A stretch of DNA of 64,000 nt, taken from assembly GCA_950295325.1 (NCBI GenBank), contig OX485804.1, positions 50,828,429 to 50,892,428 on the forward strand, read 5' to 3'. Position 1 is the first letter of the stretch. Each line of letters begins with the position of its first letter. The notes under the pieces were generated by a model that saw only the letters and a program-made list of their open reading frames with translations, searched no databases and was not told the DNA's origin. The DNA is from Polytrichum commune. Taxonomy: Eukaryota; Streptophyta; Polytrichopsida; Polytrichales; Polytrichaceae. Positions 15,925 to 59,984 of the stretch are shown piece by piece. A program made the position numbers and the translations under genes.

Positions 15925-17865
15925 TCCCTACAATATTTGCCTTAAGAACTCATCTAAAAGAAAAGCTCATCAACTGGATGGATTTTCCAATGATAAGCTC
16001 AAAGCAATCCCAACAATCTTCCATAATATATTGTACCTATTTTTCCTACAATGCTACCACCAAAAATCAATACCAAAAAATTGGGAGCATATCACAAATA
16101 TACTACTTCACAAAAGAGGCACAACTCTCCACCCTATTAAAACGCGGAGAGTCGACCAACTATAGACCCATAGCACTTGCAAGTACAATCGACAAATTAT
16201 TCACAAGCACGCTAACATCTCTACTTACTACATTCGGAGGAAACCACAAAATACAACATCACAACCAAGAACGTTTCCGCTCCAAGAGAAATACAACCAG
16301 ACAAATCCAAGCAATCATAGCAACCTCAAAAGATGCCAAATTCACAAATAAAGACATTGACCTCGTCTACATAGATTTTATTTTCTTTTCTTTTTTTGGC
16401 ACAATTTGAAGAATCAATTGCAGAAAGAACTCAAAATACAATATACAAAATAAATTTAACTACCAATGATTACTTGCCATAATGGAAGACTTGTCTACCC
16501 CCCCGGATGCCTTTGAACTTATAGGTAATATTTATGCTAAATCATCCACGTCCTTCCCATAATCCCACTTCACCCTACCCAACCCATTATAATCAACTGC
16601 AAAACAATCCAAGGGACACCTTAAGCCCATACATATTTATCCATTTCTTTTTACCTCTGCTATGGTGGCTACAAAAAGACCAATTGAGGTACCACTTTAG
16701 TCCATCACCACCTCTGCATACGCAGATGACCTCGCCATTCTATCAAACAATATAGAAAACATACAACCTTGACTAGACAAACTCCAACAATATGCGGATC
16801 GGGCTCATATGGATGTAGATATGTACAAATGTGCAAGCACAAGCTACGCCAATAAATTGAATTACAAGCCCTAACATTCACTACGTACCTCAAAGCACAA
16901 AATATTAACTACAAAAACCAACAACTTCCCATTGTGCCACAAAATGAACCAAACACCTACCTTGGCATCAAAATGATACCTTCCCTCAAATGGGTCATCC
17001 AAAATGAAGTCACCATATATAAAATCAATAAAAAATGCCACACTCCTTATCTACCCCACCTCCTTACAACAAGATTCTAAAAGTCTCATCGCATTAATCA
17101 CCCAGTCGCTAAATACATATTACACGTCTCACCCTTCTTGATTCCCGACGTTAGAAAACTAGACAAGCTCCTCATTATACTCACAAAAGCTATTTGTAAC
17201 ATCCCCGTGGACTCACCTGACATCTTTAAACAACTCTCAAAAGTACGTTTGGGATTGAAACATTCTCCTTCCTACCAAGATATGCTACCATACTTATTGA
17301 ACAACTCACATGTACATTCAACACTTGTCCCCTCGTAGATATCTACCAAGGTTTAGTAAAATTCACAATGAATAAACATGGTGGAGTTGAATATCTACCA
17401 CTTCACGAAGAACAAGCTTGCTCCAAGTCACCCACTTCAAGAGCCTTGTACATCTTGAAACCACACTTCCACATCCATAGACTCTTTAGACACCGCCATC
17501 CCCGCCTAATTGAGGATCGGTACAAAAGCCCTCTCTATACCTCCCTTTCTGCTCATCAAAAATCCAATACATAGAAATTCATCAAATAACTCACCACCTT
17601 CAACATTACTTCCCTCCCCCAAATCCAAGACCCTAATTGCACCCGAATACTAACTCACCAAGAATTGCAACAAACATCCTAAACTAAATCCAAAATAATA
17701 AAACATGCCTTCCTACAAGCCACCGTTGTCTTCCCCACCGTCACATATTATACTCAAGTCCCACCACCCTTGGCGCCTCCCATGCCCCACCCACCAAACC
17801 CAATATCCAAACCTACAAATAACACTACTACCCTAAAACTTGGAATCCCCATATCATAGATTTCC

Positions 17866-17866
<1 letters not shown>
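15925..17866 (+). pseudogene. Old LINE copy 1, 5' part: decayed reverse transcriptase
   Basis: Translating the + strand across shifting frames gives recognisable RT blocks collinear with the young LINE. These are an NLSNNKAPG-equivalent region near 15,935, NYRPIALASTIDKLFTSTL near 16,160-16,215, TTRQIQ, VYIDF near 16,366-16,380, SAYADDLAIL at about 16,713-16,742 and, past the RT, IYQGLVKF and FNITSLPQIQ equivalents up to the proline-rich linker near 17,800. Frameshifts and stops are abundant, so it is dead and old. The N-terminal endonuclease and first ORF are missing. It breaks off at 17,866, in codons equivalent to the IID of the young element, and resumes at 27,152. Confidence 0.8.
17855..17866. 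repeat. Target-site duplication, left copy
   Basis: CATAGATTTCCA, identical to 27,152-27,163. The two copies bracket the young LINE exactly, the left one abutting its (TATC)n tail. Confidence 0.85.

Positions 17867-17896
<30 letters not shown>
17867..17896 (-). repeat. LINE 3' microsatellite tail (TATC)7
   Basis: Seven GATA units on the + strand plus GA. The run directly abuts the left target duplication on one side and the 3'-terminal hairpin region on the other. Short tandem tails at the 3' end are common in non-LTR elements and reflect RT slippage at target priming. Confidence 0.8.
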
Positions 17897-17900
17897 AACT

Positions 17901-17921
17901 CCGGTCCCTTTTAGGGGCCGG
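17901..17921 (-). other. 3'-terminal hairpin of the LINE RNA
   Basis: On the element strand CCGGCCCCTAAAAGGGACCG folds with the next G into CCGG-C-CCCT / AGGG-A-CCGG, a 9-position stem with one mismatch and a three-base loop, four bases upstream of the tail. In several LINE clades such a hairpin is the RT recognition site for reverse transcription; that role is inferred here. Confidence 0.6.
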
Positions 17922-18041
17922 CGTGAATGGAGTGTCCGTTCGTAATGCCAACAACCCGATGCCCACAGGACATGGGGAAGCTGGGACAAAACTACTCTCC
18001 TCTTTCGAGGATGGACACTATAGTAACCGAGAAACAAATAA

Positions 18042-18063
18042 CGTGGGCCGATCATGGCCCACG
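18042..18063 (-). other. Second perfect hairpin in the LINE 3' UTR
   Basis: CGTGGGCC and GGCCCACG are perfectly complementary across a 6-base loop (GATCAT). Role unknown; it may belong to the 3' UTR structure recognised by the element's own RT. Confidence 0.55.
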
Positions 18064-18116
18064 GCGGTGCATGCCTTTTAGGTATAATTAGTGTTTTTGT
18101 TATGAGAGTGAACGCC

Positions 18117-18345
18117 AAGTCATGATTCCTCGGTTGGTTGTGGGAGGATGTTTGAGTTAAGACGTTCCGGGTTCGATTTCAGTCGAGTCCGTATGATCGT
18201 CTAAAATGTAACGCGTGACTTGGTGCTGCAAGTGAGTAAAAAGCAGGAATTTGTACCAACCAACCGGCACCAATCCCTCATTCTGAGCTGTAAATAGATA
18301 CTAAATATTAAATATTAAATATTAAATATTATATATATATATATT
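18117..18345 (+). mobile_element. Possible tRNA-derived SINE inside the LINE 3' UTR
   Basis: On the + strand, opposite to the LINE, TCGGTTGGTTGTGGGAG (about 18,130-18,146) resembles a tRNA D-arm/A box. GGTTCGATTTC at 18,170-18,180 matches the B box, about 40 bases downstream as in tRNA genes. A body of about 110 bp follows, then an (AAATATT)n-type tail at about 18,299-18,334 and a TA run. This is the standard layout of a plant SINE. No clear target duplication was found, and the boxes could be coincidental, so limits are approximate. Confidence 0.45.
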
Positions 18346-18355
18346 TTGGTGGGTT

Positions 18356-18640
18356 TTATGGAGGGTCTAAGTTTTGGGGGAGCGGTTGGTGGTTTTCAAT
18401 TCTCCTCTTATGGAGGAGGATGGACATGGCATGTTGTATTGCAATGGTATTAATGTTTTTAAAGGTATTTTTGATGGTAACCAGGGGTATTTTGAGATTT
18501 TCTTCTAGTATTTTCATAGATGGGATGTGGGCCGTAGCTCGGGCCCCAACTGTGATGACAATAAGTGGTTCGATTTTCCATCCTCTGGAAGCAATACTAT
18601 CAATCAAAGGTTTGTATTTGTTGTTTTTTGCTTCTATTGT
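18356..18640 (-). pseudogene. LINE second ORF, C-terminal end of the restriction-like endonuclease
   Basis: This open stretch of 94 codons lies in the same frame as the ORF above it and is separated only by the TAA at 18,641-18,643. It has no start codon of its own that need be used. It begins TIEAKNNKYKPL, with a KY pair where R2-type nucleases carry their conserved lysine, then WKIEPLIVITVGARATAHI, the hydrophobic strand and GA-type loop seen at this point in the nuclease C-terminus. The same block, unbroken, is found at about 33,600-33,815, where the position of the stop is a CAA (Gln) codon. It ends at TAA 18,356-18,358, taken as the true terminator. Confidence 0.7.
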
Positions 18641-21163
18641 TTATGGGGAAAATCTGTCGTTACAATATGTGAATTCAATAAATTGTATGGTGAGGTTAGG
18701 GTCAATGTCAATGGGAGGGTCATTTTGATATGGTAATCCTTTAACGCAGAGTATATCAGGTCGAAATCTTGCGTTGCAATGACATCTTTGTGTGTTACAT
18801 GTACAGGGGAGTAGCCAATTGGGGACTGTATTTTCTTGGGGGTTATTATTGAAGGTACCGGCATTCATGAGAGTAAAACATCGGGATTTTTCGGACGAGA
18901 TTAGAAGCTTCCTAATTTCTCCGACTGCTTTGTTATGTCTTTTAATTCGTAGTGAGTGTATATGTTGTTGGTTGCATTTCAGTAGAACATGTAGCCAAGT
19001 GTCTGGATCGTTTGAATTGCATATAGGGCATGTGATAGAGGGGTACCTCTGGTGACCGAAGAACATTTGTTTTCTAGCATTACCCATGTATGTTCCTGTA
19101 CGGAATTTAATAAGGCATGATTTTTGTTTGTCCGTGATTAAGGGATTTGTCCAGAATTCGTTGGACAGTTCTTTGTCAATGTCTCTATTTTCTGTCCATT
19201 TACACGTGTTGGGGGTTTGTGTGGCCATGATTGCTATATTGGTTTCCCTATCATATTTTTTAATTTGTTTTTCTAAGAATCTTACTGGGCCTTTGTCTGG
19301 GACGTCTGCCATCGAGGCCCAGACGTCCTTTTGGTAATAGTACGGGATGGCGTGGGCATGTTCGTATGGGTGGATGGCAATTCTGTGTTCTAATTCTAAC
19401 CCGGCTTTTGCTAGTTTATCCGCTTTTTCATTACCGTCAATGTTGACGTGTGCTCTGACTTTGTATAGTGTGATTGGCTGTGTACGGTCTTGGAGGATTT
19501 TTACCATGGAGTTGAGTGTGGTTTGGTCGGGGTGACTATTGTGGAAAGTGGGGTGTTTAATTTGTGTATTGAGTAGGTATAATACGTTTAGACTGTCTGT
19601 GAATATGTATGCGGGTTCATTAGGGAATTTTGTATTGATGATTCTTAGTGTTTTGTGTATAGCCATCATTTCTGCACGTAGTATGTTTTGATGCCCATGG
19701 AGTCTTTTGGCGATATTTAAGCCTTTGGGGCTATAGATACCGTATCCAGCTCTTTCTCTTCTCCATACCCCAGGGGCAATTTCTTTGGGTTTTATAAAGG
19801 ATCCGTCCGTGTAGTAGCTAAATTGGGGGTGGAATTTTAGCGGTAAGTTAGTTTGGTAGTTTGGAAGTTGTGGGGTGGGGATATTATTGTGTAGGGGTGT
19901 GTTTGGGTAGTTTGATTTAGCCCATTTTTTACTAGGGTTAACGGTGGTGTTTAGAGGGGTGGGTGGTGCAGTTTGTGTGTGACTTTGTAGTATTTGGAGG
20001 TTATTTGCTGTGTCGCTTATTAATTTCATTTGTTCGTAGGTGCCTATGTTATTGTTTTGGTGATGGATACAAAATATTTGTATGGTAGATGGTTCTTTTC
20101 TTGTGGTATTGAGCTCGGAGGGTATTGTGGGTTCCTCATACGTGATCGTATCAGCGGCGAAATGGGCAATGACGTGTGTGTCTGGGAATGGGCCTGTGTG
20201 TGGGTTGGAGTTTTGGTACCAATTAGTATCCGGAGATATAAGTATAATGATTGTATATGGATCATTTTGGGCCGCTATGCGCGCCCAGTGAATAGCTTGT
20301 TGTAGGTCTGTTGTATTATGAGGGTGTGCGTAACCGATTCCTTGCCATTTATGGTCAAACGCTTTACCTAGGGATCCAAATATTATGTCTCGCGAGAATG
20401 GTGAGTAGAATTGGATGAATTGTGTGGGGCATGTAACTGGGGATGAAAAATATGAGTGGTTAATATTGAATGTTGTAATCAGGAGATCTAATATTTGGGT
20501 TGGTATTGTATATTGGGCTCGTTTGAGTGGGTCATTTTTTGGGATACGGTATTTGTACCTTTGGTATAACCAAACAATTTTAGTTTCGAACGATTGGGTA
20601 GATGGTTCTAGACCGTGTGTGTTGTTTTTTGCCAATTGGAATTGTTTCCATAGCCATGTTAGTCTAGCTTTCGGGATGGTAATGAGGTGTCGGCCATTGT
20701 CTTCGTATATGTGAGCGACATCGAATTGTGTTTGGATGGTATCAGAGTTTGTTTCGATGTCGTTTTCTGGGTTGCATTCATTAATAGAGATATGTGCTAG
20801 TGGAATTATTGTGGTTGGTGTGACGTATCTTGTGTCTCTATGTTGTTCTGTGGAGAAGTAGGCATTAATTATGTTTGAAAAAACTTTGTGTTGTCTTTCT
20901 TTGTAGTAATAAATAAGTAGGTCTGTGTTGTGATTACATGTGTTGGCTTCACAGTAGGGGTATAGGTCCCTTTGAGTTCGCCATTTGTTATATGTGTTGT
21001 TATTTGTTGTAGTCCATTGACATAAGTACGACGTGACTGTTCTTTTTATTCCGTTATGGTCATTGGATTGTTTTTGTTTATGATCGATTATTCTGTGTAT
21101 GGGGAATTGTCGGGGGTCTTTAAGCATGTTGTTGGGAGGAGGGGTAGAGGGGGGATGGGGAGG
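18641..21163 (-). CDS. LINE second ORF, RNase H - CCHC - restriction-like endonuclease segment
   Basis: Open from the TAA at 21,164 down to the TAA at 18,641; counted from the ATG at 21,127 it is 828 residues. Residues 1-230 are unassigned. About 238-330 (FGSLGKAF, KWQGIGYAHP, then IIILISPDTNWY) resembles a phage-type adenine methyltransferase layout, but the NPPY motif is absent. RNase H occupies about 436-575 with YTDGS (D441), AEM (E486), TDS (D511) and EKADKLA (D570). At 700-718 CPIC, H713 and C718 form a CX2CX9HX4C knuckle, followed by RHNK (730-733). RPDIL (789-793) and IEFTYC (817-822) form the nuclease core of the R2 type, with an unusual extra CTC...CHC cluster at 775-784. The real protein would be continuous with the RT upstream; the TAAs are lesions. 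Confidence 0.85.
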   Translation of the reverse strand, partial: PPHPPSTPPPNNMLKDPRQFPIHRIIDHKQKQSNDHNGIKRTVTSYLCQWTTTNNNTYNKWRTQRDLYPYCEANTCNHNTDLLIYYYKERQHKVFSNIINAYFSTEQHRDTRYVTPTTIIPLAHISINECNPENDIETNSDTIQTQFDVAHIYEDNGRHLITIPKARLTWLWKQFQLAKNNTHGLEPSTQSFETKIVWLYQRYKYRIPKNDPLKRAQYTIPTQILDLLITTFNINHSYFSSPVTCPTQFIQFYSPFSRDIIFGSLGKAFDHKWQGIGYAHPHNTTDLQQAIHWARIAAQNDPYTIIILISPDTNWYQNSNPHTGPFPDTHVIAHFAADTITYEEPTIPSELNTTRKEPSTIQIFCIHHQNNNIGTYEQMKLISDTANNLQILQSHTQTAPPTPLNTTVNPSKKWAKSNYPNTPLHNNIPTPQLPNYQTNLPLKFHPQFSYYTDGSFIKPKEIAPGVWRRERAGYGIYSPKGLNIAKRLHGHQNILRAEMMAIHKTLRIINTKFPNEPAYIFTDSLNVLYLLNTQIKHPTFHNSHPDQTTLNSMVKILQDRTQPITLYKVRAHVNIDGNEKADKLAKAGLELEHRIAIHPYEHAHAIPYYYQKDVWASMADVPDKGPVRFLEKQIKKYDRETNIAIMATQTPNTCKWTENRDIDKELSNEFWTNPLITDKQKSCLIKFRTGTYMGNARKQMFFGHQRYPSITCPICNSNDPDTWLHVLLKCNQQHIHSLRIKRHNKAVGEIRKLLISSEKSRCFTLMNAGTFNNNPQENTVPNWLLPCTCNTQRCHCNARFRPDILCVKGLPYQNDPPIDIDPNLTIQFIEFTYCNDRFSP

Positions 21164-21739
21164 TTAGGGGGGTGTACGGGGGGGGGGGGGGGTTGGTGGG
21201 TGTGGTAGGATATTGTGGTGTCTTATTATATATTTATTTTTTAGGGATCTTAGTGGATGGTATTGTTGGCATGGTAGGGGGCATTGATTTCCAGGAGGGT
21301 GGCAAAATAATTGATTAGCTATGTTAAGTGCGCTTTTGATAAGTTTAGAAGGAGTGGAGTGGTAGATTTTGAATTCGTCCGGGTTCATTAGAGTGGTACC
21401 ATTAGGCATGGTAATTTGGTCTAGTGTGATTATATTATGTACAAGTAGTTTGTGTAGTAATTTAAGTGAGGTGTTGGGATTTAGGCCATGAAACATTTGT
21501 GCTTCCTGCATCCATGCAGTTTCAAGTGGGGATGGGGTTAGTAGGAAATTGTTTATTGTACTTTTTAGGTGGACTCCGGCTTTATGTTTGAGCAAGAATA
21601 ATGTTCTAGTGATGGGTGATCTAACACAGTGGTGGTATTTAATGCGGGTGATTTCCTTAGAGCCCCCATATTTGGCGAGTATGAATTGAAGTAGACCAAC
21701 ATATATTTTCCCAATTCTACCTTTATCATTGAGTGCGTT
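21164..21739 (-). pseudogene. LINE second ORF, linker between RT and RNase H segments
   Basis: An in-frame continuation between two TAA codons (21,740 and 21,164). It starts NALNDKGRIGKIYVGLLQF, an RT-thumb/connection-like helical region with counterparts at about 17,330-17,400 in the old copy (IYQGLVKF). It ends in a proline-rich run (PPTPPPPRTPP), interrupted by the second TAA and resuming PPHPPSTPPPNN. A G15-type run on the + strand (around 21,178-21,191) encodes the prolines. The ATG at 21,595 is internal and unlikely to be a start. Confidence 0.7.
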
Positions 21740-23644
21740 TTATAGTTGTTCTCCAATGCATCTTAAATAGGCATTTTGTAGTGAGAATGCTTCGATTCCG
21801 AATAGATTGTGTGGGAGTTGTGTAGCGATGTTAGATGTGCATTTGGGTATTCCGCATATCGTTTTGTGAAGTGCTATGATTTTTTTATCGAGTTTTTTGA
21901 TAGCTGGTATGGAGTATGACACTGCGTAGAAGCTGTATGCTATTCCAACACGTATGACTGTATCTGCCATGTTTATTTTTTGTTTCATAGTAGCTGGGCA
22001 TGTTACAAGGGCTTGACACTGTTTTATTACTTTAGCTGTAGTGGTATTTATTTGTGTTTTCCATTTGAATGATGGTGCAAGATTTATTCCTAGATACGTG
22101 TATGGTTCATGTTGGTTTAAGACTGGTATAGGTTGGTTTCTGTAGTTGATATTGGTAGATTGAATTAGGGCTTTAAAGGTTGTGGGGTGAAGTTTGGATT
22201 TGTTTGGGCATCCAGTTATTGCACATTTGGGTATTCCAAGATCCATTCCTGCCCATTCGCAGAATTTGTCTAGTTTGTTGAGTTGTGTTTGTAGTGTCTC
22301 TAGTTTATTGGCGATTGCTGCTAGGTCATCTGCATATGCTGCTGATGAGATTGTAATTTTAGATGTACCAAAAGTGTATCCATTATTCCCTTGTTGTAGC
22401 CATCTGAGGAGGGGTTCTAGGAATATGATAAATAGATATGGGCTAAGGGTATCACCTTGTATTGTACCTCTTTGAATGAGGATTGGTAAGGTTTTACCGA
22501 AGTGTTCACCAGTGAATATTGTTGAGGATTGTGAATATATGTTTCCTATGAGATTTATGGAGTCAGTGGGATATCCTAGATCTTTCATTATGGCTAAAAG
22601 TCTGGCGTGATCAATGGAGCCGAAGGCGTTTTTGAAGTCAATGTAAAGAATATATATATCTTGGTTCGTGAGTCTTGCGTCTTCAAGCACTGCGATTAAT
22701 AATTGGATTTGCCTAGAAGTGCTTCTCTCTGCTCTAAACCCTTCTTGACTATCGTGTAATATTTGGTATTTTTCTCCATACGCTGATAGGATAGAAGTTA
22801 ATGTACTCGTGTAGAATTTATATATGGTGTTAGCTAGTGCAATAGGTCTATGGTTTGTTAGTTGTGATGGGTTACCTTTTTTGTATAGTAAAACTGTTAG
22901 ACTGGTTTTCCATGATGCAGGGATTTGTTTTTGTTTATAACAATGTTTAAAAAATAATAAGAGTAATTTATGGAAGCGTGGAGGCATGTTTTTTAGAATT
23001 GAATTGGGTATTTTGTCTGGGCCTGGGGCTTTGTTATTACTTAGGTTTTTAAAACAAAAGTCGTATATTTCTTGGTCAAAATACGTGTGTAGAGGAGTTT
23101 GGGGTTCTCCTCGTTTGTCAATGATATATCCGTCTAAGTCATGCCATGGATATTGCCGGACTCCACATGTGCAGTGTAATGGGTGTGTATTTTGATATTG
23201 GCATGTGGGAACTGTAGGACGGTTACTGATGGATTGTTGCGTGTATATTTCTGCTGCGATATCTTCTGGGTTAGTTAATATATTGTTTTGTCTATCAATG
23301 ATGGAGTCCAGGGGTGAGGTTTCAGTGTTCTTGAAGACTTTTCGATTTATCTTTTTGGGGCTTTTTTCATACATTTGACGGTATTTTGATACGGCCTTTA
23401 GAATGCAGTCTTTGGTGTATTTTGTGGTGATTTTCCTGGCTTCTTTATTTGCATTTTTTGCGATGGTTGCTATGGCATCAATCCATTCAGTAGGAGGTGC
23501 CGTTGTAACAGGTGGATGTGGGATGTTTGTGTGTTGGTGGTTTCGTATATCGTTTAGGATGGGATGTGCTTGCCAGAGTGGATCGTGTTGTGCAATGTAT
23601 ATGGTTTTCTGATGAGGTGATATGTGTTGAGGTGTCTTTTCCAT
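21740..23644 (-). CDS. LINE reverse transcriptase segment
   Basis: 634 residues in this frame. It makes cDNA from the element RNA at the nicked target. RT motifs in order: NKAPGPDKIP (204-213), NHRPIAL (264-270), QEGFRAERST (300-309), YIDFKNAFGSIDH (334-346), QGDTLSP (396-402), AYADDLAAI (436-444) and a GIPKC block (about 470). The catalytic aspartates are D336 and D439-D440, so the core is intact. The first ~100 residues overlap the endonuclease ORF in another frame. A 1-nt gap in an A4 run near 23,605-23,608 would join the two, so the ATG at 23,644 is probably not the natural start. The frame stops at TAA 21,740-21,742, then continues open. Confidence 0.92.
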   Translation of the reverse strand: MEKTPQHISPHQKTIYIAQHDPLWQAHPILNDIRNHQHTNIPHPPVTTAPPTEWIDAIATIAKNANKEARKITTKYTKDCILKAVSKYRQMYEKSPKKINRKVFKNTETSPLDSIIDRQNNILTNPEDIAAEIYTQQSISNRPTVPTCQYQNTHPLHCTCGVRQYPWHDLDGYIIDKRGEPQTPLHTYFDQEIYDFCFKNLSNNKAPGPDKIPNSILKNMPPRFHKLLLLFFKHCYKQKQIPASWKTSLTVLLYKKGNPSQLTNHRPIALANTIYKFYTSTLTSILSAYGEKYQILHDSQEGFRAERSTSRQIQLLIAVLEDARLTNQDIYILYIDFKNAFGSIDHARLLAIMKDLGYPTDSINLIGNIYSQSSTIFTGEHFGKTLPILIQRGTIQGDTLSPYLFIIFLEPLLRWLQQGNNGYTFGTSKITISSAAYADDLAAIANKLETLQTQLNKLDKFCEWAGMDLGIPKCAITGCPNKSKLHPTTFKALIQSTNINYRNQPIPVLNQHEPYTYLGINLAPSFKWKTQINTTTAKVIKQCQALVTCPATMKQKINMADTVIRVGIAYSFYAVSYSIPAIKKLDKKIIALHKTICGIPKCTSNIATQLPHNLFGIEAFSLQNAYLRCIGEQL

Positions 23645-26091
23645 TTTCTCGCAAGTTTGCGTGGCAAAAACCCACCTTGTTGTGATGTTCTGTTCGTAAG
23701 GTTGGGTAGTGGGTCTGCTTTACAGGTTTCTTCAATCGTTTCTAAAATTTTGTATACAATGTGGTCGAATGTTGTACAGGCTTCCGCCCATTGATCCGGG
23801 CTTAAGTGTTGGTGGTTTTTGAGTAGGGTGGTAAGGGCTTTTATTTGTGCAGAGTTTTTTTCGAAGAATGTTATGTTGAATTTTTTGATGTTTTCTGGTG
23901 GTATTGGATTTAGTATTCTAGTTGGTGACGTGTTTGTGGGGGGTGGGGATCTGGCTATAAGGGTGTTGTGGGGGATATGTAGTACAACTGGATAATGGTC
24001 TGAGTTTAGATTGATGTTTGTGATTGTGGTAGAAATGAATTTGTTGTTGTCTGGTGAGTGAATGTAGAATCCATCTATTAGACTTGTTGATGTGTAATTA
24101 TAGCCTCCTTGTCTGGAGATGCTAGTGTTAGTTGGGATATATTCTAGGTTGAGTGATGCGGTGAAAATTTTCCATTGGTAATCTTCTTCTTGTGGAGGGG
24201 TGTTAATGTTGTTATTTTGTCTGCCTCTAAGTGCGATATCTCGGTTAAAGTCCCCACATAATGAATACATGTGATTGGGGTGTATAGTGATTTCGTTAGT
24301 GATTTCGTTCTTAAGTTGTGGAATGAGGCATGTGTCTTCTAAGTGTGTAGGCATGTACATGTGTATGATTAGCCAAGGTATTAGTGGATGGTTGTTTATT
24401 TTAATTATTTGTAGGTATGGAGATATATTTACTGGCGTGGGAATTTTGGTGATATTCCCAGGGAATGCATATTTCTTGTGGATAAGTGTGAGTAAGCCTC
24501 CTTTTCCAGGGGTATAGGGCATTCTTTGTTGTATGCATCTTGTGAGTGCATGTGTGTTGTTGAAAATGAGTTTAAATTCCGGAAATAGGTTTTGTATGTA
24601 TTTTGTAGATTTATTTGCGGTTAGTTTGGTTTCTTGGATATGTATGATTGCTGTGTTGTTTAGCGAGTTGTTTATTAGGCTTTGTAGGTTTGGTAATGAT
24701 TTGTTGAATGATGACGCATTCCATGTTATTATGTTTGTTTCGTGCTCGGTGTCGGTGTTAATTCTTGGGGTTGGTGTGGGAGTAGCTGGGGGTGGGGGTG
24801 GGTGTGAATATTCGTTGATGCTTTCTAGGCATCGGAGTGCTTCGGTGATCAATTGATTTGGGAGGAAGGGAAATTTATTTTGAAGGGTGATTGGTGTTGG
24901 TGTAGTATCTTGGTTGTGGATAAATTCATATATCTCTGTGTGTATTGAATTTTTTGGGTATATTATATCTTGATTGTTTTCTACAAAAGTTGTGTAGGGG
25001 TGAGGTGTTGATATATGCCTTTCGGGGGGGTTGGTGAGGTTGGCCAGTCTGATAATCAGTGTGTTCGTCCATATGTTATTAAAGTGGTAGTTTTGGGGTT
25101 GGGCTAGTATGTTATTGCATGTGTCTATTGAGGGGTGGATGGTGATGATTAGAGCGTATAGCATATGGGTTAGTGGTGATTGCCTTTGTGTTTGGATATA
25201 TTGATGTAGATGCGGGTAGGTGGTTATTGCTTGAGGGTGTAGTGGGTGTGTGTTTTTTAGTATGGGGGTAAATGTGTTTGCTATGTGTTGGTATTCAGGT
25301 TGTAGTTTTATAGTGTTTGGAATGAAGTAGATGTTGGCTCTTTTTTTGTGTGTAGCAGGGTGTGTATGTAGGATGTTAGGTATTGGTCCGGGGTTGGGTT
25401 CTATGTCCCCGCATTTTAGCAATTCTAGTTTGTTAATAAAGTAGTATCCGTGGGAATGGAGTGTTTTTGGATTTTTCATGTGTGTTTTTAGATATATTAT
25501 GATTGTGAACTTGGTTGTAGTAAAGAGGTTAGGTATAGCGTGTATGATGTTTTCTATTTGTTTGGGTGAGAAGTGTGAGTTTATATTTTTTATAGATTTT
25601 TGGCTTGTTATTGAGTTAGGTCTCCAGTTATTTATGAAGTGGTATATGTTATTATTTGTGTGGCGAGGCCGGTAGGCCGAGGCCATTGTATCTTTTGGGT
25701 GAGGTTGGTATTTTGAATGAGGGTTTAATAGGTGTTTGAAATAGGGTTTGTGATGGTGTTTGATGTTGAGGTGAGGTTTATTTAGGGCGAGTAGTTTATA
25801 TTTACTTCTTGTAAATAGATTAGGTAAGGCAATTATTGTTTTTTGTGTAGTTTTTGGGAGGTAGTGTATAGGTTTAGTATGTTGGTGGGTAGGCTTTGTG
25901 ATTGTGTTAATGATGGGGTTGAGGGAGTTGTAATGTATATATCTTGTTAGTTTTATTTTGTGGTGAGGCCGGTAGGCCGATGCCGTATTGTGTACTTTGT
26001 TGTATTGGTTAGGATATTGTTGTATTGTGAGTAAATAGATTTGTTTTTGTGAGGTGTTGGGGGGGTTTTCTTTGTGAATTTTAGTATTCAT
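23554..26091 (-). CDS. LINE second ORF, N-terminal module, 2A-like site and APE endonuclease
   Basis: 845 residues from the ATG at 26,091. Residues 37-236 are two diverged ~100-residue units, each opening ASAYRP and containing ALPNLFT/AIPNLFT. The second ends in CGDIEPNPGP (227-236). Residues 430-445 are proline-rich. The APE/exonuclease III-type nuclease spans about 452-707: ITWNAS (N458), HIQETK (E487), LCGDFNRD (613-616), LIDGFYI (D673) and SDHYPV (697-702); all key residues are present. This enzyme nicks target DNA. Beyond HLIRK (about 827) the frame leaves the homologous sequence, which continues as TIYIAQHDPLW in the RT frame, so the last ~18 residues are frameshift product. The protein is rich in N, H, T, I and P, reflecting an A/C-rich coding strand. 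Confidence 0.88.
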   Translation of the reverse strand: MNTKIHKENPPNTSQKQIYLLTIQQYPNQYNKVHNTASAYRPHHKIKLTRYIHYNSLNPIINTITKPTHQHTKPIHYLPKTTQKTIIALPNLFTRSKYKLLALNKPHLNIKHHHKPYFKHLLNPHSKYQPHPKDTMASAYRPRHTNNNIYHFINNWRPNSITSQKSIKNINSHFSPKQIENIIHAIPNLFTTTKFTIIIYLKTHMKNPKTLHSHGYYFINKLELLKCGDIEPNPGPIPNILHTHPATHKKRANIYFIPNTIKLQPEYQHIANTFTPILKNTHPLHPQAITTYPHLHQYIQTQRQSPLTHMLYALIITIHPSIDTCNNILAQPQNYHFNNIWTNTLIIRLANLTNPPERHISTPHPYTTFVENNQDIIYPKNSIHTEIYEFIHNQDTTPTPITLQNKFPFLPNQLITEALRCLESINEYSHPPPPPATPTPTPRINTDTEHETNIITWNASSFNKSLPNLQSLINNSLNNTAIIHIQETKLTANKSTKYIQNLFPEFKLIFNNTHALTRCIQQRMPYTPGKGGLLTLIHKKYAFPGNITKIPTPVNISPYLQIIKINNHPLIPWLIIHMYMPTHLEDTCLIPQLKNEITNEITIHPNHMYSLCGDFNRDIALRGRQNNNINTPPQEEDYQWKIFTASLNLEYIPTNTSISRQGGYNYTSTSLIDGFYIHSPDNNKFISTTITNINLNSDHYPVVLHIPHNTLIARSPPPTNTSPTRILNPIPPENIKKFNITFFEKNSAQIKALTTLLKNHQHLSPDQWAEACTTFDHIVYKILETIEETCKADPLPNLTNRTSQQGGFLPRKLARKWKRHLNTYHLIRKPYTLHNTIHSGKHIPS
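25384..25425 (-). other. 2A-like (ribosome-skipping) motif
   Basis: Residues 223-236 of the second ORF read ELLKCGDIEPNPGP. This fits the 2A signature D-(V/I)-E-x-N-P-G-P with the usual upstream leucine-rich stretch (LELLK). In such motifs the ribosome fails to form the Gly-Pro bond, here G235/P236, releasing the upstream ~235 residues as a separate protein. 2A-like motifs near the N-terminus are known in several non-LTR elements. Activity here is inferred. Confidence 0.8.
25384..25983 (-). repeat. Two tandem 300-bp coding units before the endonuclease
   Basis: Unit 1 encodes residues 37-136 and unit 2 residues 137-236. Both start at a shared GC-rich block, GAGGCCGGTAGGCCGA on the + strand (about 25,665 and 25,965), exactly 300 bp apart in otherwise AT-rich DNA. 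The products share ASAYRP and an IPNLFT/LPNLFT motif with similar spacing. Divergence elsewhere is large, so the duplication is old or under selection at these motifs only. Confidence 0.65.
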
Positions 26092-26213
26092 GAATACTAT
26101 AGGTAGGGTTTTATTTTTAGTATATATTACTAATTTAATTATGTTTTTGTTTTTAGTATATAAATATACTATAAGTAATTTATAATTGTACGCCGCCGGG
26201 ATGTTTGTCGAAA

Positions 26214-27107
26214 TTAGTTTGTCAAGTCCATATTGTTTTCAATTTCCGATATGTCCGGATGAGCCGCTTCTATAGCATCCAAGGTAATCTTCATTTGCCT
26301 TTGAAGGAGTTGTATTTGGAGCTTGGAATTCTTGTTTGACTCCGCTTGCACATGGTCGGCATAAACCTTAGCCTCTTGCACAATCTCATCTTTAAGGTTC
26401 ACCATTTCCTTTCGTATTTCATCCGTCCCCTTTTTTACCGTTGCTTCTACCATTTTGTTGAGATCTTTGTTGGTGATGTTTTGGTGCGGTCCATTCTCCA
26501 GAGCTTGGATGGTGTTTGCAAGTGCGGTGTTCACGTCTGAAAATCCAAGTCTAACTAGCTCTTCTTTACTAGGTGCATTTATCCCGTCTAGACTTTTTGG
26601 ATGGGGGGTAAATTCAACATATTTACCAAATATTTTTTCATTTTTCTTAACAAATTTCTTGTAGACAAACGAGTTGAGGCATTGGACATTGCATGAGCCC
26701 TTATGCTTCCCGTTCTCAAGTCTAAAGTAAAAACCGGGAACATTTAGTTCTCCCATGCATTTTCGGATTCCTTCTTCGATTTGCATGGTTGTTTTTACCT
26801 TATTGAGGTTACGGGCGATTAGAATGAGTGCATTCTTTCGGGCTTTATCATCTTCTGAGAGTTTTTCATTACTTGCAAAGTTTACATCTACTATTTCATT
26901 AAAAAATGAAAGTTTGAGTGCTTTAATTCTTTTGGCTTCCTCTGGAGAGGGTGCTTTAATCCAAGCAAACTCTGCATCCACCGATTTTTGCACATTCGTT
27001 ATTTCAAAGTCAAGGCCCCGTCGAAATCCATCCCCAACTATTTCTACAAACAAATCATACCATTCTTTACCCTTGATTGACGGGGTTGTGATTTTGACGG
27101 AGAGCAT
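26214..27107 (-). CDS. LINE ORF1: RRM-like and coiled-coil RNA-binding protein
   Basis: 297 residues from the ATG at 27,107, the first ATG inside the element. An open frame reaches 27,290, but the target duplication shows everything above 27,151 is host sequence, so the longer start is rejected. About residues 95-175 have an RRM-like alternation: NALILIARNL (strand 1), helix IEEGIRKCMGEL, GSCNVQCLNSFVYKKF and KYVEFTPHP. After a linker (SLDGINAPSKEELVRLGF), about 215-280 form a charged coiled coil (VKKGTDEIRKEMVNLKDEIV onward). ORF1 proteins of this type bind element RNA and form the RNP with the RT. It is intact, and its K/E/V-rich composition contrasts with the second ORF. The ~120-nt spacer to the next ORF has stops in frame. 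Confidence 0.75.
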   Translation of the reverse strand: MLSVKITTPSIKGKEWYDLFVEIVGDGFRRGLDFEITNVQKSVDAEFAWIKAPSPEEAKRIKALKLSFFNEIVDVNFASNEKLSEDDKARKNALILIARNLNKVKTTMQIEEGIRKCMGELNVPGFYFRLENGKHKGSCNVQCLNSFVYKKFVKKNEKIFGKYVEFTPHPKSLDGINAPSKEELVRLGFSDVNTALANTIQALENGPHQNITNKDLNKMVEATVKKGTDEIRKEMVNLKDEIVQEAKVYADHVQAESNKNSKLQIQLLQRQMKITLDAIEAAHPDISEIENNMDLTN

Positions 27108-27151
27108 GGATGCAATTGCAATGGTATCAAAGGATTTACACACTTTGCCTA

Positions 27152-27163
27152 CATAGATTTCCA
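27152..27163. repeat. Target-site duplication, right copy
   Basis: CATAGATTTCCA, identical to 17,855-17,866. It joins the 5' end of the young LINE to the resumed old copy 1. Confidence 0.85.
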
Positions 27164-28234
27164 CGTTCAAAACAACACATAGAAAAGACACATGGAGCTC
27201 CAAAACACATACAAATACCTTCCATTGCCATTGGAACCATCCACTCCGTAACTTCGCAACATGGGTCACACATAATACTCCTAATCCCAAATAACATCCT
27301 TTATGAACACAATCTCTTACTAATCATGCAACCACCACAAAACATCAAATAAGAAGCCATAAAACAAAAACGACTTCTCAAACAAACCATACAAACCCGG
27401 GATAAACAATCCAAGCCTTTTCCATCCCGCACCTCACACTACAAATTCAAGAATGCAACTTGGACAAAGACATAGTAGCCACAAAACCCACCATACAAAT
27501 CTACCCGCTCGAGCCACAAATACATGATAACAAATACAACTAACAAGTCATCATCCCACTTGAAAGACTAACTTGTCTATGGCAAAGATTTTCAACCCAT
27601 GCACCCACATATATTGCCAACCCCCCCCCCCCACACAACAAAGACTAATTCTTTGGCTCTCTAGCCCCACTTTCTCCACTCAATGGAAGGGAGAAAGATT
27701 CTCCCACGTACATAGACCTCCTACCAAAAGACATAAAATGGGCTCAACTAGAGGCACAAACAAACCCATTCTCCATCACAATTGTCCGTTAATTTTGATG
27801 ATTGGTCCACCAACATGCTTAACCTACTACAACTAAATAATGTCACTGCCAATCCATCCCACCGCTCACTATCCAATATACACCACCCCTAAACCTCCTT
27901 ACTATAGCCGCAAAGAACCACCACTTACTTCAATCATGATCACCTCTCATACAACCCACTACACAAATATACCACTATTTCTACACAACCTCCCCGGCAC
28001 ACTCCTCCCATTATGTACCATATTCCCGTATAAACCTCGCCCACAAATGTACACACTACCTCTCAAAATTCCTAAGGCCTTGCACATAGCCCAACCACCG
28101 CCATACACAAATACATTTACACCCTATTCCTACCACCATCCGCCACAAACATCCTCCCCCTACGCTTCCCACCAACTTACGCAAATTGCACATACGGCTC
28201 CGTTAAACCCCCCCCCCCCCTCCCCCGCGGGCCT

Positions 28235-28832
28235 GATGGAGAAGGCAGAGGGAAACATTGCAGGCCTAGTGTATTCAATGGGCCATTGAATATCAACATT
28301 GTAGCTAAACTACTATGTTATCCAAACATCTTTATTGTTGAATTATATCATTTATTACTAGCAGTAGAACACACCAAAGCACTCACCACTAGCACATATA
28401 TATTTTTACAAATACTTTGAACATTATATACCTATTATTAAACCTTACCAAAGACCATTCTTCCCAATTTGACCACCTAGACAACTCCCCGTAACTCCCA
28501 TTATTATTGCCACAAGGAACTCCCCCCACCCCCGCCCCGATGGAGAAGGCGAAGGAAACATTGCAGGCCCAATGTATTCAACGGGCCACTAAATATCAAC
28601 ATTGTAGCTAAACTACTATGTTATCCAAACATTTTCATTGTTGAATTATATCATTTATTACTGGCAGTAAAACACACCAAAACACTCACCACAAGCACAT
28701 TCATATTTACATATACTTTGAACATTGTATACCTATTATTACACCTTATCAAAGACCCTTCTTCCCAATTTGACCACCTAGACAACTCCCCATAACTCAC
28801 ATTATTATTGCCATAAGGAACTCGTCCCCCCA
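28235..28832 (+). repeat. Tandem duplication (about 2 x 300 bp) of an RNase H segment
   Basis: 28,235-28,538 and 28,539 to about 28,832 are direct copies, both opening GATGGAGAAGGC and sharing AACATTGCAGGCC, CATTGTAGCTAAACTACTAT and CCACCTAGACAACTCCCC. They differ by scattered substitutions and small indels. C-rich runs occur at the junctions (28,208-28,225; 28,521-28,538). It arose after the old LINE copy landed. Confidence 0.8.
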
Positions 28833-29690
28833 ACATAACTATACTTAAAAATAGAGCTCACACAAATGATTATTGCCAACGACAAAGTAGACAAATTGGC
28901 CAAATGAGGTGTTGAGGAACCACAAATCATGCACACATCCTTCCACAATATCGGCCACCCACCCCCTATTCGCCCTCAATTCCCCCAACGTCTACCCAAC
29001 ATGGCAGGTGGGTCCGTAACACCTCCAAATATATATTGAGAAAGAATACAAAAGTGCACTCATAGCACATGCCACAAATAAAATACCAAATGTAAATAAA
29101 TATCTCACCAAACAATCATCTACACCTAAAATGATCAAACTTTGTTTTGGATCCCCCTGTGGATCACAATTGCCCAAATCACACAAGACCTCAAATTCCA
29201 CTATGGGAGATATCTTGGTAGCTACTGGAAAAAACACATTCTCAAACAAGACATTTCCCTCCTTTGCAACCTCTGCACAACACAACAAAATGATAATTGG
29301 CTCCACCTACTATCATGCTGCAAAATCAAACACATTGACAAACCTTTGTACCAACCGCCACAACAAAGCGGTTCAAGCAATAGCCAACACACTCTTAGCC
29401 CATCCCACGACATGTTGCTTCACAATATGCTTTGTTGCAACTACTCCTAACCCAACCGGGGTGGAAAGAGCTATTGGCAATCATCATCACTACTTGCATT
29501 AGAGGAATTATCTACACCAACACCATGCAATGCCTCGAGGACCTTCACATAACCCCCCATAATACTCATAAATTAAAGGAGACCATCTCCCAAATAGCTA
29601 ACATATATCTAAAACATATCATTCTCAATGAACGAAACTATAAAAGAAACGAGCACAAGTCCCTCATGTAATCTTTACTAACCTACACCT

Positions 29691-32746: not shown

Positions 32747-32849
32747 ATCAACTAACGCGTATTGTTTAATAGTGTTATGATGAGACACGAGGAGACTTGT
32801 AAGTGAGTTATTAGGAGCCAAATAATAATAATAATTCAAAACAATTCAG

Positions 32850-33960
32850 AATAATCATCAAACCCAAGAAAAACCAACAAGCACCCCACACATCCACATT
32901 GCCCATCCGACCCCATACTGGCTAGCCAGCTGTCCAATAGCCACACACGATGGCGCCATCCGCAACCTACGCACATTCATATCAAAAGAACATGGAAACC
33001 AAGAAAAAACCTTTGCCAAAACCAAATTTCCATACGTAGACAAATGGTTATCAAACACCCAAATAAATCAGAGACTCTCTAACCACTTTTGGCATAATGA
33101 CAAAATACCAGATACCCAAATCACCCAACACACTAAAATTTCGATATGCCCAATATATGGGCAACCACAGGAAAAACATATTTTGGCTCCTCACACACCA
33201 AAACCCCAACTACACACTGTGTCATAGGAACGAATGAGACACGTGGCCCCACTTACTATCTACATGCGAACACCCATACCTAAAAGGGCTTAGAATCGCA
33301 AGACATAACAAAACAGTACACCTTATCACCCAGGACACTACAAGCCAATAAAAACAGCAGATTCCTTACCATGGTCAATGCACGTCATCTCAACAATCGC
33401 CTACAAGAACAAACCGTACCAGACTGGCTACTACGATGCATATGCCAACAACAACCATGCCAATGTGAAACTAAACTTAGACCCGACATCCTATGCAGGA
33501 TTGGAGCCCCCAACCATATAACACTTCCTATATGGCCATCACCTAACCACACATTACAATTCATTGAATTCACATATTGCCACGACAAATCCACTGAACA
33601 AGCCATTTCACAAAAACACGCCAAATATGACCCACTGAATAACACCATCCATAACAATGGCTGGAAAACCAACCCCATCATAACAATCACGGCAGGAGTA
33701 AGAGGAGCCATACATGAACACTCCATTCAAAAACTCACAAAATTAAAAATCCCAAAATCAAACATAAAAAAACTCATGAAGACCTACACCAAAATGCCAT
33801 TAAATACCTCACCTATCTAGTATTAAACAAACAAAACTAGACAACAAACATACACCAATCCCCCCACCATAACAACAATGGACTACTAGTGACCCATCAG
33901 AGCCCACCTCCCGAAAGGAGGCATAAAACCATATACTGCATCACGGAATACCGTGATCAG
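32850..33960 (+). pseudogene. Old LINE copy 3: CCHC knuckle and restriction-like endonuclease
   Basis: A 5'-truncated relative. At about 33,135-33,300 the + strand reads RYAQYMGNHRKNIF, a stop, then DTWPHLLSTCEHP and RIARHNKTVHLI, the knuckle and RHNK block. The nuclease is then open for 149 codons (33,371-33,820): WLLRCICQQQPCQC, LRPDILCRIG, LQFIEFTYCHDK, the KYDPL lysine, and TNPIITITAGVRGAIHEHS. This is the best preserved nuclease C-terminus in the window and shows CAA where the young copy has TAA. The 3' UTR holds hairpins CCTCCCGAAAGGAGG (33,909-33,923) and ATCACGG/CCGTGAT (about 33,940-33,957). Confidence 0.82.
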
Positions 33961-48599: not shown

Positions 48600-50740
48600 C
48601 AACATTCTATGAGCTCCACCATCCACCCCATCCTAGAACTACCACCAACCCAACCAAAAACCAATAAAACAACAAAAACAATTTCAACACAAAACAAGCA
48701 AACAAAAAACAAAAACAAAAACAAAACCAAACTTCACAATTTAATTAACATGGCTCCTTCAATGATGCCTCCCAGATGTACACACCCACCAACCCAATTA
48801 TACTCCCATATGCTCTCAACCGCAACACCATATCTAAGTCTATGATTTCATTCTTCATTAATTTCTTCTACTTAACACATTCCCATTGTTATGCCTCCCC
48901 TAACATGTAGCTACCCCCACCCCCCACCCTTTCCCGAACTGCTATGGAAACACTCCACTGGGCCCAATGGTAGGCCACTCAAACCCCAACACATTCAACA
49001 TCTTTGTTCTTCCCTACAATGAGTTGTACAATACACTTCAACATCTAATAGGACCCCATTGTGACACCCAAGTCCTCACACACCTCAAATACTCCCCCAA
49101 CTATGTTTCCCACAATACATAACTCGTGCGAACCACCACCATCCTCTATGTGCATCAATACGCCGCACCGACCATCATACCACCTTTGCAGAGCACATCA
49201 AAGCCTTGAAGCCACCCTACGACTCAACAAACTCTCTTCACACAAACCCTAGCGCCTTGACCACATCCACCCATTTGAACATATGCAAAATCGAAATACA
49301 CCGACCACCCTCCCCATTTCATGAACACCCTCAAAACATCTCCACACCTCTTCTTGAACATTATTACACACAACCCCACTTAAATTTCCCACAACACACA
49401 CATATAACAAATATCAATCCTTCACAACCTCCACAAAAGAAGGAGGGGAAGGCATTGTTGGACTGGGAGTCTACTATCTAGAAGGCATCGACCAAATTGC
49501 CTATTGCCTCCTGGATACACAAAAATCCTTATAGCATAATTAATAACCATATCCGCAACCCTTGACTTCATCCAAAACAACATGGCACTTCTACATATTC
49601 ATAGACAGTCTCTCAACTCCCCCTACCTCGTGAATAAGCACATTCGATACCCCTCCTCCCAAAACGATCACCCCATCAACCTACAAACTCACCCAATCAC
49701 CCTCCACAAATCCAAGCCCTCTCAAGAATACTTGGCAAAAATGCGGCAAATAAACTAGCAAAATTCGGCACTAACAAATCAATGTCCGCTATGACTGCCA
49801 AATGCACACAAACCACACAACGCCTTTTTGGCACTTCAAAATACTAATATAATACCCCAACAAGACTCCCATTTGACACTTTAAAGCATACATCCAAAAG
49901 GGATACCAAATACAACTCACAACCACAATCCTCCCACAACGCCTATACGTTGCCAAATGGCTCAACAACCCTCTCGTCTACTCAACCCTCTCCAATCAAA
50001 TATGGTCATCCCCAAAATGCATAAATGCCCAAATCATACAAACACTTGAATTGAGATATCGATGTTATATGGGAACCAACGGAAACACCCCATATGGCCC
50101 AAACAATTGCCATCATCTATGTGCCCTCTATGCCCACTTCTGGACGTCATCACATGTCTCAACTTACTCTCCATGTGCACTAGTCCCATCATCAATAACA
50201 TCCAAATGGCCATACCTAACAAAGTAGTTTAGCAGCTACATAAACTCCTCCTTTCACACTCCAAGAATAGAGACATGTGATTGGCTATACCCATGCATGT
50301 GTGCACATAGGCATTGTCAATGCCCCACCCCGACTAGAACCATACTTATTAAATTGTTTATACAACTGAAACACCATCCATTACACCACACAAAACTATA
50401 GTCCCCACTTCAATGAATTCACCTTTTGCCATGACCGAGACCTAACATTGGCTACCCAATGCAAACAAGTAATGACCAAACATAGTGGGGACCCAGGAAG
50501 ATGCCGGTTGGTTCGTCACCCTCATCATCCTCACAACAGGCATTCGCGGATAAATGCACATGGATACGAAAATATTTGATTAATGCTACATCCCCCTCAT
50601 GCCAACCCACGTATGCATACAACAAATCCACCTACTGGCCATAAAACACCTCACACTCCTCATGCTCAATAAGAAGCAAGTAGAAAATCACCAACTCCCC
50701 AAAGTACCCCAATAAATCCACAACAACAACAACCACAACA
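48600..50740 (+). pseudogene. Old LINE copy 2: linker, RNase H, CCHC knuckle, nuclease
   Basis: A + strand A/C-rich region. 48,600-49,430 is a proline- and threonine-rich decayed linker. About 49,440-49,760 reads, across frames, EGIVGLGVYYLEGIDQIAY, FYIFIDSLS and NAANKLAKFG, the RNase H strand, catalytic D and terminal motif. At about 50,050-50,130 LRYRCYMGTNGN matches the FRTGTYMGN block before the knuckle. Later text near 50,410 (NEFTFCHD) matches the nuclease IEFTYC block. Many stops and frameshifts. RT and APE are absent. Confidence 0.65.
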
Positions 50741-58889: not shown

Positions 58890-59520
58890 ATATCCTTGAA
58901 CAATATATATCTCCAATTTGCAATCTACACAACCACCTATCAAAATGACAATTGTCTCCAATTAATTTCATGTTGCAAAAACAAACACAATACAATTTAA
59001 GAAACAACCGACACAATAAAGTGGTACATGCACTAACCATAACATTGTTAGCCCACCCTACAACATGATGTTTCACGTTGATTAACACCGAAGAATTTAA
59101 AGACCACACCCTGGATAACATAATACACTCTTGGCTCCTCTCTTGCACATGCTTCCTCCCACAAACCCTAAACCTTGTCATATTACAGCCATGCATACTC
59201 TATGTCCTAGGTGCACCACCCTCGGCCAAACCACCCTTTATCCCAAACCCCAATCCAAACACACATATAATTGAATTCACCTATTGTAACGACATGTTTC
59301 CCTCTGCCGATGTATCACGCAAACTTGACAAACGTGTTGTACTCCAACCACTCTTATCCGACAAGGTTGGGTAGTACTACTGCGCATAATCATCACTGCT
59401 TGAAGAAGAGGTACCATACACAACTATACCACCCAAAGTCTCAAAGACATCAACATAACCCCCCATAATGTTCATAAATTAATGGATACTTCCTCTTAGA
59501 TTGGAATTTGATATCCAACA
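58890..59520 (+). pseudogene. Old LINE copy 4: CCHC knuckle and nuclease C-terminus
   Basis: At about 58,996-59,060 NLRNNRHNKVVHALT matches the RHNK block. Then FTLINTEEFKDHTLDNIIHS continues to SWLLSCTCF, and HIIEFTYCNDMFPSADVSRK lies at 59,263-59,322, collinear with the young nuclease. The RPD is decayed (LVILQP). A TGA interrupts just before FTLIN. It ends in NPP near 59,466. A 5'-truncated dead copy. Confidence 0.78.
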
Positions 59521-59984
59521 CCCATCGTACCCAATAAACTAAAACTTGACAAACAAAACACCAATTCCACTGGACTAAAAACTACTCATCACCCCTCGGA
59601 CAAACAATATCCTTTGGTCTACCTACTGACAACATGCACTAAGCCATCTCCGCACACCCTGCCCACACGGGCATGGACTCGAAATGGTGAATGGACAACG
59701 CATGTCGGTTGTATTAAAAATTGACAAATTTTAATTTCTTTTTATTCAGTTGCACCATAATACACCTCTCTCATATCCATCCATGTTAAAAGCACTGGTT
59801 TGGATTTGGACCATTCTAGCCCGGCTGCACCCATGCATTTGAATTATAAATCACTTTAACATAGTCCCCCCATGGTTCAAGTATGTCACATGCGACCTCG
59901 TTGTTTCCGTCCATTGTTCTCGGAATGGTGGGGTGATGGGCTGACCATCACCACATTGTCCATTGTATAATGGATATCGCATAC

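What the first reader, a model, noticed from the sequence alone, without database searches (positions are those of the whole stretch)
17867..27151. A LINE with both APE-type and R2-type endonucleases (Dualen/RandI plan)
The second ORF carries a complete APE nuclease (ITWN, QETK, GDFN, SDHYPV) before the RT, and after the RNase H a CX2CX9HX4C knuckle, RHNK, RPD...IEFTYC and a KY lysine, the layout of the restriction-like nuclease of R2-type elements. Most LINEs have one or the other. The dual plan is known from Dualen/RandI of green algae; finding it with RNase H, a 2A-like site and an RRM ORF1 in a probable streptophyte genome would extend that clade.
Basis: partly seen in the sequence, partly recalled or inferred. 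Interest (0 to 1): 0.92.

Follow-up and report, generated by a model that had tools for sequence, protein, structure and literature searches.

The report
Plant LINE with two DNA-cutting enzymes
A jumping gene in what looks like a green-plant genome carries two unrelated DNA-cutting enzymes, as a group first described in green algae does, and also a relative of an enzyme that marks the start of messenger RNAs; natural selection has kept all three parts.

The parts
17867..27151 (-). whole 5'-truncated LINE copy (sense = minus strand)
   Evidence: 98.3-99.1% identical to 8 other copies; all 8 share the 3' border, 5 of 8 span to 27151; TSD
27152..27163 (.). target-site duplication, 5' side of the element
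   Evidence: 12-nt exact repeat
17855..17866 (.). target-site duplication, 3' side of the element
   Evidence: 12-nt exact repeat
17867..17896 (-). 3' tail, tetranucleotide repeat (TATC)n in sense
   Evidence: TRF; same tail with 2-7 units in 18 of 20 further 3' ends fetched
17898..17924 (-). 3'-terminal hairpin just before the tail
   Evidence: RNA fold of the last 135 nt: z -2.36, 7 of 200 shuffles fold at least as well
26217..27151 (-). 3' part of ORF1 (residues 436-747 of 747); no known domain found
   Evidence: tblastn 98.7%; Pfam
25384..25410 (-). 2A-like site GDIEPNPGP in ORF2
   Evidence: ORF2 residues 228-236; D.E.NPGP in 43 of 120 listed relatives
23977..24741 (-). APE-type endonuclease, ORF2 residues 451-705
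   Evidence: AF2 pTM 0.86; LINE-1 EN top PDB match; catalytic residues
21803..23092 (-). reverse transcriptase, ORF2 residues 1001-1430
   Evidence: RVT_1 1.1e-29; phmmer to R2 RT 2.6e-30
20003..20749 (-). PCIF1-like methyltransferase-fold domain, ORF2 residues 1780-2028, NPPF replaced by HPHN
19382..19834 (-). RNase H, ORF2 residues 2085-2235
   Evidence: Pfam RNase_H 7.3e-13
18383..19285 (-). zinc knuckle plus R2-type restriction-like endonuclease, ORF2 residues 2268-2568 (a TAA interrupts it in this copy)

Best explanation
A dead, 5'-truncated copy of a currently or recently active non-LTR retrotransposon that encodes two different endonucleases in one ORF2, with a PCIF1-like domain between RT and RNase H. 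Shown: architecture, predicted folds, conservation, purifying selection, dispersed insertion with 11-12 nt duplications and a (TATC)n tail. Inferred: it integrates by target-primed reverse transcription; the two nucleases act at different steps (most likely the R2-type domain, held next to the RT as in R2, and the APE domain each cut one of the two target strands); RNase H clears the template RNA; the 2A-like site detaches the N-terminal part of ORF2; and the PCIF1-like domain, lacking the canonical catalytic tetrapeptide, recognises the capped 5' end of the element's own mRNA rather than methylating it.
For: Intact copies. APE fold and residues N458 98/98, E487 95/100, Y579 105/105, D614 104/106, N616 103/106, D673 88/91, D698 77/88, H699 86/88. 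R2-type fold and residues D2444 48/51, E2471 44/46, K2487 45/45, K2490 44/44. PCIF1 fold and family. dN/dS of query vs L069: APE 0.06, RT 0.07, PCIF1-like 0.09, RNase H 0.05, zinc+RLE 0.09 at dS 0.45-0.63. A separate intact family, L068, 64% identical over 2,357 aligned positions, keeps the 2A, APE, RT, RNase H, zinc and RLE motifs. TSDs and tails.
Against: No activity was measured; selection shows that both nucleases are needed, not which strand each cuts. TSDs were found in 3 of 8 copies examined (2 of 7, plus the window copy); four of the five misses are long copies whose true 5' end is uncertain, the fifth is C3_2755625. Within the youngest subfamily (9 copies) pN/pS is much weaker: APE 0.36, zinc+RLE 0.49, PCIF1-like 0.81, RT 0.86 (pairs not independent, several copies dead). 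The C-terminal model is only moderate overall (mean pLDDT 70, pTM 0.51), though most of the R2-type and PCIF1-like cores are above 80. One RNase H column is less fixed (D2094 47/59). The cap-reading role is a guess from homology; L068 has AHPP instead of AHPH. L069 and L070 read GDIKPNPGP at the 2A-like site.
Confidence: 0.8

Rival explanations
1. Only one nuclease does the cutting; the other is kept for DNA binding or target choice.
For: Most LINEs manage with one nuclease type (recalled); PMC4640811 describes APE elements as arising by replacement of RLE by APE (passage read).
Against: Catalytic residues, not just the folds, of both nucleases are nearly invariant, and dN/dS is similarly low for both.
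Confidence: 0.3
2. A chimera or tandem of two elements (an APE-type LINE beside an R2-type element) read as one.
For: The window holds related fragments on the other strand.
Against: One continuous 2,625-aa frame in three dispersed copies, the same order in the 64%-identical family L068 and in 89%-identical L069 and L070.
Confidence: 0.01
3. Reassigned genetic code (TAA = Q), so the window copy itself would be functional.
For: The three in-frame stops in the RT-to-RLE frame are all TAA, and table 6 opens an 1,817-aa frame.
Against: Other copies have no stop there under the standard code; other decayed copies carry TGA and TAG too; the window copy also has a frameshift.
Confidence: 0.01
4. The PCIF1-like domain is an active adenine-N6 methyltransferase acting on the element's RNA or DNA.
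For: Methyltransferase fold with conserved FGS.G segment; strong constraint.
Against: The NPPF motif of PCIF1 stands opposite HPHN here and HPPN in L068.
Confidence: 0.2

Closest known systems
Dualen / RandI group (Kojima and Fujiwara 2005, not held; passages about it read in PMC4640811 and PMC3636483)
   Same: APE plus PD-(D/E)XK-like nuclease, RNase H, microsatellite-like 3' tail ((ATT)n and (CTATTT)n in green-algal RandI, PMC3747384 table passage)
   Different: PCIF1-like domain and 2A-like site, not mentioned for Dualen in the passages read; the cysteine protease that I recall for Dualen was not found by Pfam; the host is probably a land plant, for which the table passage seen of a 2022 review names only L1 and RTE LINEs (PMC9033089)
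R2 retrotransposon (PDB 9nl3, 9dou, 8gh6)
   Same: RT scores highest to R2 among solved structures (108 bits, against 55 for LINE-1); zinc knuckle plus RLE fold
   Different: also has APE, RNase H and ORF1; insertions are dispersed
LINE-1 / I-type APE LINEs
   Same: APE fold, ORF1+ORF2 plan, dispersed insertion
   Different: they lack the R2-type nuclease (recalled; PMC3636483 passage); here the RT scores higher to R2
PCIF1/CAPAM cap m6Am methyltransferase (PDB 6irw) and giant-virus PCIF1_WW proteins
   Same: fold, SP..C and FGS.G segments
   Different: fused into a LINE; NPPF is HPHN or HPPN

Membership tests
Dualen/RandI | APE endonuclease N-terminal to RT | tested here: met
Dualen/RandI | RLE C-terminal to RT in the same ORF | tested here: met
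   frame continuity
Dualen/RandI | RNase H present | tested here: met
   Pfam 7.3e-13; RNase H is listed for Dualen/RandI in PMC4640811 (passage)
Dualen/RandI | RT phylogeny inside the Dualen group | tested here: inconclusive
   13-row tree without any named Dualen sequence; groups with P0002, whose Dualen identity is my inference
R2 clade | RLE as the only endonuclease | tested here: not met
   conserved APE
R2 clade | rDNA-specific insertion | tested here: not met
   18 readable 3' junctions of 20 fetched have flanks unlike one another by eye; no Rfam hit in the window
L1 / I groups | APE as the only endonuclease | tested here: not met
   conserved RLE
PCIF1/CAPAM | PCIF1 fold | tested here: met
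PCIF1/CAPAM | catalytic NPPF motif | tested here: not met
   HPHN in the query; columns H1921 36/38, P1922 33/38, H1923 31/34; alignment; that NPPF is catalytic is recalled
2A (DxExNPGP) | motif present in the query and recurrent in relatives | tested here: met
   43 of 120 listed relatives by exact regex; of 58 with letters there, E231 is E in 48; L069 and L070 have K there
2A (DxExNPGP) | ribosome skipping | not testable with these tools
   needs a translation assay
ORF1 RRM | RRM fold | tested here: inconclusive
   no RRM match in Pfam even at E 10 on an ORF1 segment; no structure predicted

The most novel reading that the evidence does not exclude
A land-plant LINE lineage in which APE and RLE share the two target cuts, and which has captured and re-purposed an mRNA-cap methyltransferase (PCIF1) domain, active site rewritten, to hold the capped 5' end of its own RNA. 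It would be a living counterpart of the intermediate proposed between R2-type and APE-type LINEs.
Probability: 0.3. Interest if true: 0.88.

Novelty: new variant of a known kind. Interest (0 to 1): 0.74.

Why it matters
Dual-nuclease LINEs have been read as a relic of the switch from R2-type to APE-type insertion. Here intact copies, with both nucleases under similar purifying selection, make the question 'which nuclease cuts which strand' directly testable, in what is probably a plant. A cap-methyltransferase fold inside a LINE suggests that retrotransposons can take over the machinery that reads mRNA 5' ends.

Tried and rejected
Code reassignment: rejected. Two neighbouring elements: rejected. 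Pfam on ORF2 did not report the APE even at E 1, and phmmer against PDB did not at E 0.001; Pfam hits in relatives (0 of 2 in P0126 and P0209), a weak NCBIfam xth match (E 0.0037) and the model settled it. No relatives confirmed in viral contigs or genome contigs. Literature: PF12237 in 0 papers; PCIF1 with retrotransposon terms, 2 papers, neither about a LINE-encoded domain by title and abstract; a wider search, 20 listed of 878, none by title. Dualen: 40 listed of 178, mostly unrelated words; 7 papers; no listed title is about Dualen in a land plant, but I did not open PMC4438587, PMC4455052 or PMC5753468. Kojima and Fujiwara 2005 is not held. A 2A-in-LINE search gave two reviews; in the one opened, 2A-like did not occur in the held text. 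RRM in ORF1: no support. The 14 control genomes of the genome search are no plant control: the chlorophyll family rang only in a cyanobacterium. Copy number by 3'-end pattern did not complete. RT tree: P0206 and P0210 were dropped for lack of a YADD match; P0003, P0004 and P0007 are long branches.

Full report
What is there. On the minus strand, 27151 to 17867 is one copy of a LINE. It is flanked by the 12-nt duplication TGGAAATCTATG (sense) and ends in a (TATC)n tail behind a hairpin. Searching the genome with the 840-aa frame gave 54 scored matches, 92-100% identical, out of 6,037 first-look candidates, so 54 is a lower bound. I compared 8 other copies in full or large part. In 3 of these 8, ORF1 (747 aa stop to stop) and ORF2 (2,625 aa stop to stop, 2,576 from the first Met) are intact under the standard code. 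The window copy lacks the 5' part of ORF1 and has a frameshift and three in-frame TAA; it is dead.

Architecture of ORF2 (residues of the intact copy P0001). 2A-like site 228-236; APE 451-705; RT about 1001-1430 (Pfam RVT_1 1072-1338, E 1.1e-29); PCIF1-like domain 1780-2028 (Pfam PCIF1_WW 1822-1917, E 3.5e-10); RNase H (Pfam 2090-2230, E 7.3e-13); zinc knuckle and R2-type nuclease 2268-2568.

APE. Pfam does not report it in the query at E 1, but 140 relatives of residues 215-900 exist (120 listed), many with precomputed APE domains. Catalytic columns are nearly fixed: N458 98/98, E487 95/100, Y579 105/105, D614 104/106, N616 103/106, D673 88/91, D698 77/88, H699 86/88 (denominators are relatives with a letter there, of the 120 listed). 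An AlphaFold model on 85 sequences (query plus 84 of the 120; pLDDT 85, pTM 0.86) has the LINE-1 endonuclease as its best PDB match (E 6.7e-12). Which residues are catalytic is recalled from the APE family.

Selection. Between the query and L069 (89% identical) dN/dS is 0.06 APE, 0.07 RT, 0.09 PCIF1-like, 0.05 RNase H, 0.09 zinc+RLE, with dS 0.45-0.63. Against the separate family L068 (64%) the domain values are 0.06-0.28, but dS is near saturation. For this I fetched 4 further loci out of the 150 matches, chosen for long frames; L071's frame lacks the APE part. Within the youngest subfamily constraint is weak. So selection acted on all enzymatic parts while active lineages diverged.

Insertion. 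Of 20 further 3' ends fetched (chosen from the 54 places), 18 show GGAGTTTC(TATC)2-7 followed by flanks unlike one another, all 18 beginning with T; two did not show the motif. Among the 8 copies, one (C2_42781234) has C after the last full unit. Duplications of 11-12 nt were seen in 2 of 7 copies and in the window copy. This is dispersed insertion of the target-primed kind (mechanism from established LINE knowledge).

Relationship. By phmmer the RT scores 108 bits to R2 of Taeniopygia, 72 to R2 of Bombyx and 55 to LINE-1. In a 13-row tree it groups with its metagenomic relatives and P0002 (99/99), apart from R2 and from the L1-like P0004. P0002 starts with what I read as the end of a Ulp1-like cysteine protease (recalled motif; Pfam did not call it) and may be a Dualen; that is inference. 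Papers, passages only: PMC4640811 calls Dualen a group with both APE and RLE and lists RNase H for it; PMC3636483 says the same of the two nucleases; PMC8226300 finds Dualen in Chlamydomonas and relatives; PMC12747079 in cryptophytes; PMC3747384 gives RandI tails; the table passage seen in PMC9033089 names only L1 and RTE LINEs for land plants.

Host. There are 58 matches to the chlorophyll a/b-binding family, with a tandem array near 1.75-1.85 Mb of C5. After one 620-residue chain (9vfj), the best PDB relatives of one of them are 8htu and 7xqp, which I recall as moss structures. A land plant, probably a moss, is my inference; the species is not established.

Mechanism. Shown: parts, predicted folds, constraint, insertion signature. 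Inferred: the two nucleases cut the two target strands, the 2A-like site separates the N-terminal segment, and the PCIF1-like domain reads the cap of the element's mRNA. My odds that both nucleases are catalytically used are about 0.65; for the cap-reading role about 0.35.

Noticed in passing
window 15929-17733, 28244-29653, 32844-33834, 49510-50709, 58979-59550 (all +): Five further stretches related to the same LINEs (27-91% identity to the query, P0002 or P0092 in tblastn pieces), apparently decayed.
   Followed up: partly
window 28218-28831: Direct repeats with about 300-nt spacing, 76-91% identical, inside a decayed LINE stretch.
   Followed up: no
window 25656-25684 and 25956-25984: 29-nt GC-rich repeat 300 nt apart in the N-terminal part of ORF2; a similar stretch lies beside a 3' end in L044. 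Purpose unknown.
   Followed up: no
L010, L014 (5' regions of long copies): Tandem repeats, and different upstream sequences joined at the same point about 150 nt before the ORF1 frame, suggesting exchange of 5' regions between subfamilies.
   Followed up: no
L069, L070: The open frame begins 453 and 192 residues before the first position aligned to the query (query residue 104).
   Followed up: no
L048, L050, L051: Small contigs of the assembly look like contaminants: a GIY-YIG-like frame beside a cytochrome b-like stretch, and phage-like proteins (read by eye).
   Followed up: no
G000 contig C5, 1.75-1.85 Mb: Tandem array of 14 chlorophyll a/b-binding genes with equal scores, suggesting recent amplification or gene conversion.
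   Followed up: no
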